NCBI RefSeq assembly: GCF_037975245.1
Contig: NC_092577.1
Location: 36,758,898-36,822,897 of the forward strand
Direction of reading: 5' to 3'
DNA length: 64,000 nucleotides
Origin: Apostichopus japonicus
Lineage: Eukaryota; Echinodermata; Holothuroidea; Aspidochirotida; Stichopodidae
Position 1 is the stretch's first letter. The number at the start of each line of letters is the position of its first letter. A program made the translations under genes and the position numbers. Positions 1,138 to 8,760 of the stretch are shown piece by piece. The notes beneath the pieces are model-generated. The model did not search any database, was not told the origin of the DNA, and was given only the letters and a program-made list of their open reading frames with translations.

Positions 1138-4100
1138 CTAAAGCTTCGTTTCACCATCCTTGGTTGATTGAGTATTCCGTGTCGTGGTCCTATAGCAGTT
1201 ACATTCGTGAAGCCAAAGTTTCATAACCGTCTTCTTGAGCACAAACATAACAAAGATAAGAAATCCCTGAAGGCAGACGAAAACGTATAGTAGGGTCACC
1301 GTGACGTCATTGGTCCATATTACTTCAATAAATCCCCAAATCCAAGTTATCCCGAGAAGGAAAAATAGCTAAAAGAAGAAAGCAAAGTAAGAAGAAAAAA
1401 CACAATAACGCGAAGACAATAATCACATTCCACAAATTGAAAACATCCTGTGTATGACAGAATAGGTTCTTACATGTTCGGCGGTGGACCCGGGATTGTT
1501 GTCATCGCAATCTCGTGGAAATCCTCAAAACGTCCCCTCTTCATGAATAACATGTGCATATTTTTGGTTAAAAAAAAACCTTTTCGCTATTTTGTAAGTA
1601 AAGTGTACCCTTTTGTTATTGGGAAAGTGAAATTCAAGTGCCTTTCTCTGTTGACTTTGCGTCATCGGTGCATAATTACGGAACGTCAAAAGGCAAACAA
1701 TTATCGTTGTTGTATGATAACTATTGTACGAGAAACAACTTTGCTATAGTCGAATTCCCAAACTCTATCGGATCATTAAATATGGTCGAATCATCGAAAG
1801 CAATCGCACTGTTTTCAATGCGGTGCTATCGCGTTGGGTTCTGATGCAGCAACGATGATTCTGTGTTTGTCTTTTTGGCGTTCCATACAAAATCTCTGGT
1901 TTCGTAAAACCGAACATCACTTTTCTGTAACCCCAACAAGAGAACGTCATTTGACACTTGGTAACTAAGAAAGGATCTTTTTCTGACAAATTGTAGTGAT
2001 TTAGTTCTAAATGTCAGAGTTACAATCTGACAAAATTACAAATATTTATAGCACTCCCTCGTCAGCCTATTAGCTATTAGCAAGGAGAATTTCCTTCACG
2101 GCTAATGCGGTTTGTATGTAGCTCGTCCTCCGATTAACTAGACTAGAAGATGCATAGACGATAGGTTAAGAGTCAAAGTAATTAATAACACTAACTGGCA
2201 ATGCGTAATCATATACTGAGTGCATAACCGTCTCCTTGCAGGATTTCGTAATGCGTCAAACAAGTATTATGCTGCAATGGAAAGTGATGCGCTATGTCAC
2301 TTAACTTTTTTTGTGCAGGATTTATTCTGACACACCGTGACCCAAATAAACGTTTCACGACTCGCCGTGACTTAGATTTTGCTAGTCTGTAAGACTCGTT
2401 ATTTTATAACTGACCTTCAACAACTTGAGCGACTTATGAGAGTCTAATAAAACGATTATTTGATATGAATGAACGGTGCTCGTTAAGGTAACGCAAAATG
2501 ATTTCCATACGACCGGTTACAAATGTGAAACTGGACAGCTTTATACTTGAACCGCCGCACATGACCAAATACCAGTCTGGAAAACGCATAACATGTTGAC
2601 TCTTACCGACTGAACTGACGCGACTTTGAGCAATCGAAATCATAAACGCGCGCACACTGGTGAACTATCAGCGAAAGTATCCACGTCACATATTCACTTT
2701 GGTAAACGTATTATACTTACCCTAACGTTGATAATGATCTCCGTTGTTATGTCATTGAATTGTGTACTGCGAATACGAACGGCTCTCGTTGAGTGTCGAC
2801 TCTGACGCAGTGACGTAGCAGTGAATATGAACAGCAAAATGGTGATGCTGAGAAGAATCGCCACCGGAATCACAAAGCCGTAGTATCGACCGTGGAAACC
2901 ATTAATCCAACAAATGCGTGCGCTTCCATACCAAACGTCCAGTTTACCTAAACATTGGCAGATATGTTGTGTGACGCAGATGGCCACCATGACGGCAGGC
3001 ACACCCCATGCGAGGAGTGAAAACCAAATCATCTGACGTTTGATATAGTCCTTTGAGAACGGTCGTGGGGAACGGTATCCGAACGTTCGTGCCATATTGA
3101 AAGAAAGAGTGAACATCCACGCGAAGGATGCTAACCAAGTGAAGTGTGTTAGGGCAGCCAGAGCAGCACAAAGATTCGGAAATACGACCAAAATATCAGC
3201 GAATAGCAACGTGAAGTTTGCGAAGAAGAGCGCCGCCACCAAATTCATCAGACACAATCCTGGCAGGTTCCGTAAAACGGGGAAACATAGATACGTTAAG
3301 AAAGTAAGAGCCAAACTAATCAGAGATAACGTTGTACTAACGTAGTAAAAGAGGTCCAAAAATGTTAGTTGCGGATTTAATTTTTCTGTGCAGACAATAA
3401 TCGATCCGTTATCAAAAAGGTAAATATCGCTAGGTGTTAATTTAACATCATGGTCTTTTAAATTGATCGTTCCTTCCATCTCTGAATCTTCGAAACGCCA
3501 TTCATGATTTTGAATAATGGTCTTGTTATGACAGTTGAGCTCAGAGGTCACATTAAAAAGGCATTCGTGAGAGGGCTCATACAGACTGTATGTCTTTGTG
3601 AGTGATTCGTACCTCAACGCGAACAAAATATGAGATGGTTCATCGTCAGCTACAACGAAGTCATTCAAATCTTGTAAGCTCAACTCATCAACCGTGCAAG
3701 ACGAACTAATTTGAGCATTCCTTTCTAATTCCATCAAAATCACCGATATCCCACATTGATGGTAAAATGTTTCTTGCAAATGACTTGGCCATGTACTGAT
3801 CGTTGAAAGAGTGGCTTTGATGGACTGCGACCTCAAAGCGGAATCGGATATCACCTTGGCAACGAAGGGTCCTCTTGAAGGAGCTGTAACGTTTGCAAAC
3901 TTCACCATACTAACCAAACGTATCTCAATTTCAAGATGCACAGCTAACTGAATTTGGAGGCATTGGTAGGCTGCAGAGTAGGACGTGGATAGTACGACCT
4001 GCGGGATATCAGAGGGCGGTATTCCCAAAAGGCATGATCCTCTTACTTGATAGCTGCCCCTAGGGCAGCCAACGAGGCGACACGTATCCAAAGTGGGATC

Positions 4101-7100: not shown

Positions 7101-8760
7101 TCCAACAAACTTACTAATTCCTCTATGGGTTTTGTACCGCGATTCCGACATTTCATTCGTTTCAACAAAGCAAATATAGTTTTCTTTTTAATAAAGAAAA
7201 ATCTTTTTCAAGCGTAAAAGGGCAGCGAAACAGCGAAGAGTAAATATTTAATATATATATATATATATATATATATATATATATATATATATATATATAT
7301 ATATATATATATATATATATATATATATATATATATATATATAAATATATAAATATATATATATATATATATATATATATATATATATATATATATATAT
7401 ATATATATATATATATATATATATATATATATATATATATATATATATATATATATATTGAACTGTATACCTGCATATCAATTGACCTATTGGTCTTCTC
7501 AGGTCTGTACCGCAAAGTCGCACCCAGCGTCCACCGTACTCAATCTCAGCTACACCGGAAGTGGAACTATTACCCAGCAGACGAACACCAGATATGTTAC
7601 CATGGTAACCGTGCACATCTTCTGCTGTATCTTTCAGCATAAAGAAAAATGCAGGAACAACATTGGTATTTCTTCTCTTTCAACACTTGCTTTCAAATTC
7701 TAAAAAAAAACCCATATGCTATGACCATTTTCATCAATTTCAAGGGCCCATTTATATTATGTGAAGTAAGCTCTTTTGTGTGCTACTATTATTAAAAATT
7801 TATATTTTTTTGATTTTATTATTAAAAATTTTATTAATTAATCAAAAAGTGCACTATTGTCACACGAAATTAAGAAAATTGTGGCTTAAAGTGCACTTTT
7901 GAGGTTAGATTATTGAAGATAAAAGCTGTAATAAAATATACAGAATACACAAACGATCCTGGATTGTTGGGAAATTGTTTAAATGATTTTCTGTTTGCTC
8001 AAATCAAATGACATATCCTGCTGCCCTTCCCTCCTCCTTCCCTTCCCAGATTGACCCCCCCCCCCCCCCTCCAACCGATTTCCTTAGTGTGATTGCCAGA
8101 CTACATTTCGATGTCATATACTCGCCGCTGAGAAGGTAGAAGACGGGGCCCCACAATGCACTTCACAAAAGCAAAGGTCAAAATGTCACATAAAGGTTGT
8201 AAAATACACACAGACACATTATGGCTGCTAACTTCAACACAATCCGTATCAACAACAACAACAGTGTTCAATTTACAGAGTAACACCTACACTGTTTGTA
8301 TTATTCAGCTTAACTGTTTAAGCTTGTATTTAGAGATACATTTGTAAAATAAGAAGCATTTTAAATATAAGATGGATAAACATTTAAGGCTAAATCTTCT
8401 GTGAAATATACCTCCGCCGACAAAAGTTCATGTTCGCCGATAAGAGAAAACTGTGATGTACTTTATAGGCTCCACAGTCGAATTTCAAAGAGCTGGTTAG
8501 TTAAATCAAATTAACGCACACTGCACATTACTGGAGACCGGAATACAATGCTTGATTTTACAAATTAACCAAGATTCTGAAGTGTACCTCGCCATCATCT
8601 TCACGAACCATGCATAAACATTTTAATTTTTTAATAACTTTTGAATTGTAAATACGGTACAAATTTCTGAAAGAACGAATTTGATCTTACCAACTGGAGT
8701 AGATAAAGAATTGGCCAAACACGAGATAAGGAATACAAAGAAAAGTTTCCAAGGTAACAT
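1138..8760 (-). CDS. SRCR-SRCR-somatomedin-B seven-transmembrane receptor (family B2, methuselah/adhesion-like), six exons
   Basis: Reconstructed exons on the minus strand: 8691-8760, 7471-7630, 6698-6882, 5325-5678, 2721-4924, 1138-1368 (3204 nt, 1067 aa). All borders are GT-AG and the phases agree. Exon 1 gives a signal peptide ([18 protein letters not shown]). Exons 2-3 make SRCR domain 1 (about 37-138; motif ICRHLGF spans their junction). Exon 4 is SRCR domain 2 (about 145-256; VCRQLGF). Exon 5 opens with a somatomedin-B domain (about 264-306; HSCKGRC...CSCDERC...DCC), then a long N-glycosylation-rich ectodomain and TM1-TM5 (from about 781). Exon 6 supplies TM6 ([10 protein letters not shown]), TM7 ([10 protein letters not shown]) and a short tail ending in TAG at 1138-1140. 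A stretch [10 protein letters not shown] before TM1 resembles methuselah-type receptors; I see no GPS cleavage motif. Expected at the plasma membrane; ligand unknown. The gene looks intact. Confidence 0.86.
6222..6560. repeat. AT-rich minisatellite, about 17-bp unit
   Basis: Many imperfect copies of ATCTTAATATACATATC run through the intron between exons 3 and 4 of the SRCR/SMB receptor gene. Small insertions (for example around 6433 and 6525) break the period. Confidence 0.85.
7248..7461. repeat. Long (AT)n microsatellite inside the receptor intron
   Basis: About 210 bp of nearly pure AT dinucleotide, with short ATAAAT interruptions near 7343-7353. It lies in the intron that splits SRCR domain 1 and stops only a few bases from the exon 2 donor (GTATAC, 7465-7470 on the minus strand). 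Confidence 0.95.

What the first reader, a model, noticed from the sequence alone, without database searches (positions are those of the whole stretch)
1138..8760. A chimeric receptor: signal peptide, two SRCR domains, somatomedin-B and a family B2 seven-helix module in one gene
Six exons chain with matching phases into one 1067-aa frame. SRCR domains are scavenger/pattern-recognition modules, and SMB is a small disulfide-rich protein-binding module. I know of methuselah-like and adhesion receptors carrying SMB, but two SRCR domains fused ahead of a seven-helix receptor is unusual and could couple ligand capture directly to G-protein signalling.
Basis: partly seen in the sequence, partly recalled or inferred. 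Interest (0 to 1): 0.87.

Follow-up and report, generated by a model that had tools for sequence, protein, structure and literature searches.

The report
Sea-cucumber receptor with SRCR-somatomedin-B ectodomain
This looks like a real cell-surface receptor gene, probably of a sea cucumber, in which two modified scavenger-receptor domains and a somatomedin-B domain are fused to a seven-helix signalling module; related genes in the same genome appear to carry that outer module twice, so it is a new elaboration of a receptor type already reported in other invertebrates.

Summary
Six minus-strand exons (8760-1138) join in frame through five GT-AG introns into 1067 aa: signal peptide, SRCR, SRCR, somatomedin B (SMB), Cys-rich region, 7tm_2. 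Comparison backs one gene: three other loci of the same genome (two are ~93% identical duplicates) carry the same exon order, the intron inside SRCR1 and mostly the same phases. Searching the 671-Mb genome with the SRCR2 exon alone, six of the ten best non-self hits lie 153-2072 bp before exon-5 relatives at these loci. There SRCR-SRCR-SMB-Cys-rich stands twice before the 7TM, two loci leaving under 200 bp between units: most simply four SRCR and two SMB domains in one receptor. Two corrections: residues of the SRCR cation site, the scavenger surface, are mostly missing from the 14 receptor domains examined, unlike 20 control domains, so scavenging is doubtful; no GPS was found, so it is not a canonical adhesion receptor. 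SRCR+7tm_2 is in print for sponge, amphioxus and a starfish, SMB for Methuselah-like receptors. New variant of a known kind; no transcript evidence was available.

The parts
8691..8760 (-). exon 1: start ATG and likely signal peptide, ends in phase 1
   Evidence: most hydrophobic of four candidates, none under the stricter rule (least certain exon)
7471..7630 (-). exon 2: first half of SRCR domain 1
   Evidence: a matching exon in each of six units at three other loci
6698..6882 (-). exon 3: second half of SRCR domain 1
   Evidence: a matching exon in each of six units, the weakest at E 0.15
5325..5678 (-). exon 4: SRCR domain 2, with five cysteines
2721..4924 (-). exon 5: SMB, Cys-rich region, stalk, TM1-TM5
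4767..4877 (-). somatomedin-B domain inside exon 5 (residues 273-309)
1138..1368 (-). exon 6: TM6, TM7, short tail, stop
   Evidence: 43% identical stretch at the nearest relative

Best explanation
A single gene encodes a class-B-like (7tm_2) receptor whose large cysteine-rich ectodomain is built from a module SRCR-SRCR-SMB-Cys-rich, present once here and apparently twice in its relatives. Shown by sequence: the exon chain, the domains, the matching gene structure in relatives, the absence of a GPS match, the loss of most SRCR cation-site residues that could be aligned. Inferred: the ectodomain binds a specific protein partner (matrix protein, cell-surface protein or secreted ligand) through its SRCR and SMB domains, and the stalk just before TM1 passes this to the seven-helix core and on to a G protein, without the autoproteolysis and tethered agonist of GPS-bearing adhesion receptors.
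For: Gene structure and domains. When splice sites near the modelled boundaries are chosen by score without asking for a phase, 20 of 24 acceptors and 23 of 24 donors of the relatives have the window gene's phase. SRCR2-exon search: non-self ranks 1, 2, 3, 4, 6 and 10 of 134 listed lie 153-2072 bp upstream, same strand, of exon-5 relatives. SRCR2-to-SMB gaps of 129 and 125 bp in two units, which are near-identical copies. SRCR exons of the C14/C2 duplicate pair: dN/dS 0.20 (unit B) and 0.44 (unit A), no stops, small counts. The seven receptor SRCR2 domains form one clade apart from 20 other SRCR domains of the genome (support 98), window SRCR2 with that of C17 unit A (96). 7TM matches solved adhesion receptors (ADGRG6 4.8e-15 alone, 1.4e-20 with a four-sequence profile). 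No GPS match. Cation-site residues: 0 and 1 of 6 exact in the window domains.
Against: No RNA evidence for any junction. Exon 1 rests on weak signals. In one search the top-scoring site is the modelled one in only 23 of 28 acceptors and 23 of 28 donors, and five phases disagree. The receptor SRCR1 domains do not form a clade in the tree. Some SRCR1 second-half hits in relatives are weak (E up to 0.15), and the SRCR2 of C17 unit A is below the Pfam cut-off (21.6 against 26.1). The window SRCR2 has only five cysteines. D1020 of the cation site is still D in 6 of 14 receptor domains. The C14 and C2 relatives do not reach Pfam 7tm_2, and FastTree separates their 7TM from the window's. Ligand, G-protein coupling and the role of each module were not tested. 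The structure prediction failed and was then switched off.
Confidence: 0.68

Rival explanations
1. Two neighbouring genes: an SRCR gene upstream and an SMB-7TM receptor downstream, wrongly chained.
For: No transcript was seen. Other receptors of the genome related to exon 5 have no SRCR upstream: 0 hits at E up to 1 in the 13 fetched C20 loci, with about 6.6 to 7.3 kb of upstream DNA.
Against: The SRCR exons have donors and no stop of their own before them, and recur in the same order and strand, mostly in the same phase, before exon-5 relatives at three other loci, with gaps as short as 125 bp.
Confidence: 0.06
2. The SRCR domains act as classical scavenger / pattern-recognition modules that capture microbial or anionic ligands through bound calcium and feed this to the G protein.
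For: Cation-dependent ligand binding is proposed as general for SRCR domains (PMC7043408); SRCR genes are expanded in sea urchin (PMC10855680) and varied in a sea cucumber (PMC13228809), and the own genome has many SRCR hits. D1020 is kept in 6 of 14 receptor domains.
Against: D1058 is kept in 0 of 14 and D1019 in 3 of 14 receptor domains, against 20 of 20 controls for each; E1086 is kept in 0 of 14, but 12 of these are unaligned gaps, so that column says little. Window SRCR1 keeps 0 of 6 and SRCR2 1 of 6 exactly.
Confidence: 0.15
3. A decaying gene: the ectodomain is under relaxed constraint and the receptor is on its way to a pseudogene.
For: Few cysteines in SRCR2 and lost cation residues; one module where the relatives have two.
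Against: Exons open and splice sites intact; dN/dS below 1 in the exons of the related C14/C2 pair (not measured on the window gene itself); significant matches of the 7TM to solved receptors.
Confidence: 0.08

Closest known systems
Amphioxus adhesion receptors with SMB, Kringle, SRCR and other domains (PMC2246102, passages seen)
   Same: 7tm_2 receptors with SRCR or SMB in the N terminus
   Different: the passages do not show SRCR and SMB in one protein (the figure is not held); many of those receptors have GPS, here none was found
Sponge adhesion GPCRs Aq712029 and Aq715659 with SRCR repeats (PMC4302439, passages seen)
   Same: several SRCR domains in a 7TM adhesion-type receptor
   Different: 'somatomedin' does not occur in its main text; orthology untested
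SRCR proteins with 7tm_2 of the starfish Acanthaster planci (PMC10855680; section 2.2 and the figures-and-tables section read, other passages seen)
   Same: same two domains, same phylum if the window is a sea cucumber
   Different: the table gives a partner domain only; no SMB and no architecture is shown there
Methuselah/Methuselah-like receptors with Somatomedin_B in Nematostella, amphioxus and Saccoglossus (PMC4768249, passages seen)
   Same: SMB ectodomain on a 7tm_2 core; expansion reported in sea urchin
   Different: 'SRCR' does not occur in its main text; membership by 7TM tree could not be tested here

Membership tests
Secretin-like superfamily (7tm_2) | 7tm_2 domain above the Pfam cut-off | tested here: met
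   78.3 bits against 20.6, residues 779-1029
Adhesion GPCR (B2) | GPS/GAIN before TM1 | tested here: not met
   no GPS or GAIN family at E up to 1 in the window protein or in exon 5 of three relatives; the same genome has 95 GPS matches elsewhere.
Adhesion GPCR (B2) | closest solved 7TM is an adhesion receptor | tested here: met
   the best 17 of 26 PDB matches of exon 5 are adhesion receptors
Methuselah/Methuselah-like | 7TM groups with Mth/Mthl in a tree | not testable with these tools
   no named Mth/Mthl sequences at hand; Methuselah_N not among the Pfam matches, which is arthropod-specific according to PMC4768249
SMB-bearing 7tm_2 receptors | Somatomedin_B in the ectodomain | tested here: met
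   34.3 bits against 23.1
SRCR superfamily | SRCR domain above the Pfam cut-off | tested here: met
   46.8 and 33.0 bits against 26.1 in the window; of ten domains scanned (two of the window, eight of relatives) nine pass
SRCR superfamily | dual cation-binding site (PMC7043408) | tested here: not met
   0 and 1 of 6 residues exact in the two window domains; controls 4 to 6 of 6; the last two columns are mostly unaligned in receptor domains

The most novel reading that the evidence does not exclude
A sea-cucumber receptor family in which a phase-1 cassette SRCR-SRCR-SMB-Cys-rich was duplicated as a block within one receptor gene (four SRCR, two SMB, one 7TM at three loci, two of them recent duplicates of each other) and then lost one copy in the window gene, with SRCR domains that gave up the cation-bridged scavenger surface and became dedicated protein-binding modules of a GPS-free receptor.
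Probability: 0.5. Interest if true: 0.5.

Novelty: new variant of a known kind. Interest (0 to 1): 0.42.

Why it matters
It puts a full gene model, a recurring intron signature and a set of relatives behind the SRCR+7tm_2 pair that the survey I read lists only as a partner domain. The series (one module here, two in the relatives, no SRCR found at the C20 loci) offers a natural comparison of what these modules do to a seven-helix receptor, and the mostly lost cation site argues against reading every SRCR domain as an immune scavenger.

Tried and rejected
NCBIfam gave nothing for three proteins. A profile of four exon-5 proteins matched 102 PDB sequences, of which the 60 shown match only over the 7TM or the SMB. 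A signal-peptide exon was found for one of the three relative loci only (C14). Rejected: chance chaining and two separate genes.

Set aside: the sixth cysteine column comes from a bug in my script. The open-frame probabilities are rough and not used. In the tree, two of the 32 loci given (L016, L020) gave no long enough 7TM match and dropped out; L028 gave two.

Limits: the 20 control SRCR domains come from the strongest Pfam hits, so they lean to canonical sequence. The 14 receptor domains include two near-identical sets (C14 and C2), so about ten are independent. The profile was built with the two window SRCR domains in it. One search imposed the phases; one search did not, but looked only near the modelled boundaries, with a simple splice score. 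Capped lists: one search scored 150 of 712 candidates, 150 of 282, 150 of 161. The distances were typed from the tables. Only the C17, C14, C2 and C20 loci were scanned with kilobases of upstream DNA; for the other 7TM loci I rely on the absence of a nearby hit. The C20 relatives align with exon 5 from the SMB position on, but Pfam SMB does not list them.

Full report
Where it lies. The window is C17:36758898-36822897 of a genome of 671,581,487 bases in 35 contigs. Size and GC fit the Apostichopus japonicus assembly (671.60 Mb, 34 scaffolds, 23 chromosomes, GC 38.56%; PMC10344927, passages seen); window GC is 38.45%. The species is an inference from these figures.

The observation. Six exons on the minus strand, 8760-8691, 7630-7471, 6882-6698, 5678-5325, 4924-2721 and 1368-1138, have GT-AG introns and phases 1,2,1,1,0 and give 1067 aa. 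Pfam finds SRCR in two stretches, SMB and 7tm_2; both SRCR domains pass the gathering score singly. Residues 24-770, taken as the ectodomain, hold 40 cysteines and 16 N-X-S/T motifs. Exon 1 is the least certain: the most hydrophobic of four candidates by a loose rule, and not found by a stricter one.

One gene. Exon 5 as query gives 68 matches in the own genome; after itself the best are C17:30.066 Mb (35%), C14:4.291 Mb and C2:28.764 Mb (26% each). The SRCR2 exon as query gives 135 matches at E up to 1 (150 of 161 candidates scored), one of them itself; non-self ranks 1, 2, 3, 4, 6 and 10 lie 153 to 2072 bp upstream, same strand, of exon-5 relatives at these three loci. A profile built from 20 SRCR domains of the genome plus the two window domains finds, before each of the six SMB exons there, an SRCR2 hit and both halves of a split SRCR1; the second halves are weak (E 0.00065 to 0.15) and three SRCR2 hits cover only about the first 80 of 97 positions. 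The same profile finds nothing at E up to 1 in 13 C20 loci that hold receptors related to exon 5, with about 6.6 to 7.3 kb upstream. Identity to the window is 28-31% in SRCR1 and 27-31% in SRCR2. Of eight relatives' SRCR domains scanned (four C2 domains not given), seven pass the Pfam cut-off and one does not (21.6 against 26.1 bits).

Phases. One search asked for the window's phases and found open, AG/GT-bounded exons for 23 of 24 expected; the 24th (C2 unit A, SRCR1 second half) had lain one base outside the search range and was placed. Without asking for a phase, in the reading frame of the model and near its boundaries, 24 of 28 best acceptors and 27 of 28 best donors (four window exons included) have the window's phase; the best site is the modelled one in 23 of 28 acceptors and 23 of 28 donors. 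SRCR2-to-SMB gaps are 129 bp in C14 unit B and 125 bp in C2 unit B (coordinates). The C14 and C2 loci are 93-94% identical over their two longest matching stretches and less elsewhere, so they count as one older lineage. Between them dN/dS is 0.20 in SRCR exons of unit B, 0.44 in those of unit A, 0.51 in the SMB exon of unit B and 0.63 in exon 5, on small counts.

A doubled cassette. At all three loci SRCR1-SRCR2-SMB-Cys-rich stands twice in a row: unit B without 7TM, its last exon ending in a GTAAGT donor in phase 1, then unit A with the 7TM, its first exon opening in phase 1. Between B and A lie 189 bp on C14, 182 bp on C2 and 949 bp on C17 (coordinates). On C14 and C2 this leaves little room for a promoter and signal-peptide exon, so B and A are most simply one gene with four SRCR and two SMB domains. 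In the SRCR tree the window SRCR2 groups with that of C17 unit A (96) and with the unit-A domains (87), which suggests that the doubling is older than the window gene, which then lost unit B. The other trees do not settle it: in the whole-unit tree the unit-B sequences form a clade (100) while the unit-A sequences without the window have 58, and in the SMB-region tree the window falls on the side of unit A with 63. The SRCR1 domains form no clade of their own. No further SRCR hit at E up to 1 lies in the window.

The 7TM and stalk. The best 17 of 26 PDB matches of exon 5 are adhesion receptors, G6 and G2 first (profile). No GPS or GAIN match, although the genome has 95 GPS matches, the nearest on C17 about 100 kb from the gene. 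In a tree of 32 7TM segments of this genome, IQ-TREE puts the four SRCR-bearing ones together (75), FastTree keeps window and C17 together (0.986) but places the C14/C2 pair elsewhere with low support. The C14/C2 7TM does not reach Pfam 7tm_2.

The SRCR domains. PMC7043408 (abstract and passages seen) describes a dual cation site as the ligand-binding surface, conserved across SRCR domains, and loss of binding on single mutations D1019A or D1020A. In 20 control domains all six site residues are acidic or amide in 19 and five of six in the other; in the 14 receptor domains one to three of six are. D1058 is kept in 0 of 14 and D1019 in 3 of 14, against 20 of 20 controls each; D1020 is kept in 6 of 14 (controls 18 of 20); E1086 and N1081 are unaligned in 12 and 9 of 14, so these columns say little. 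Controls are strong Pfam hits and thus biased to canonical sequence, and the 14 include near-identical C14/C2 sets. The paper notes that CD6 binds CD166 with the same face but without calcium, a precedent for the protein-binding reading.

What is known. SRCR in 7tm_2 receptors: amphioxus (PMC2246102), sponge (PMC4302439); 7tm_2 among the top-five SRCR partner domains of A. planci (PMC10855680 Table 1). SMB in Mth/Mthl receptors: PMC4768249. In the held library one paper has SRCR + somatomedin B + adhesion GPCR, three have SRCR + 7tm_2, one has SRCR + adhesion GPCR + echinoderm, two have SRCR + sea cucumber + G protein-coupled receptor (listing only). In the passages I saw of eight papers there is no description of the doubled cassette; figures and supplementary files were not seen. 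The Holothuria glaberrima preprint treats SRCR genes and its main text does not hold the word GPCR (PMC13228809, passages seen). The sponge immunity paper PMC6208332 (passages seen) treats SRCR and GPCR genes as separate genes in what I saw.

Verdict. One receptor gene with good comparative support and no transcript evidence; a new variant of a known kind. The mechanism (specific protein binding by SRCR-SMB, stalk-coupled 7TM signalling without autoproteolysis) is inferred.

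Noticed in passing
window 11026-14699 (+): A rhodopsin-family (7tm_1) receptor in at least two exons next to the finding.
   Followed up: partly
window 57688-58719 and 61713-62807 (-): Two rhodopsin-family receptor frames about 3 kb apart that look nearly identical by eye, as after a recent tandem duplication; identity was not computed.
   Followed up: partly
window 33572-54544 (-): Exons that look like splicing factor 1: KH-I_KHDC4-BBP at 43141-43431; a zinc-knuckle-like frame at 41098-41523 and proline-rich frames by eye, without Pfam match. 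The name is my reading.
   Followed up: partly
window 37466-38340 (+): Fragment of a retroelement reverse transcriptase (RVT_1 at 37466-38008) on the strand opposite to those exons.
   Followed up: no
C14:4.288-4.308 Mb and C2:28.760-28.780 Mb (L012-L015): Two receptor loci on different contigs, 93-94% identical over their longest matching stretches; the frame of exon 5 of the C14 copy runs into a long HPSI repeat.
   Followed up: partly
C20:30.30-30.58 Mb (L016-L025): A cluster of very similar receptor genes related to exon 5, mostly with 7TM start and SMB-like region in one frame, without SRCR in the fetched upstream DNA.
   Followed up: partly
window about 7250-7460: A long TA repeat directly behind exon 2, which may disturb read mapping at that junction.
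   Followed up: no
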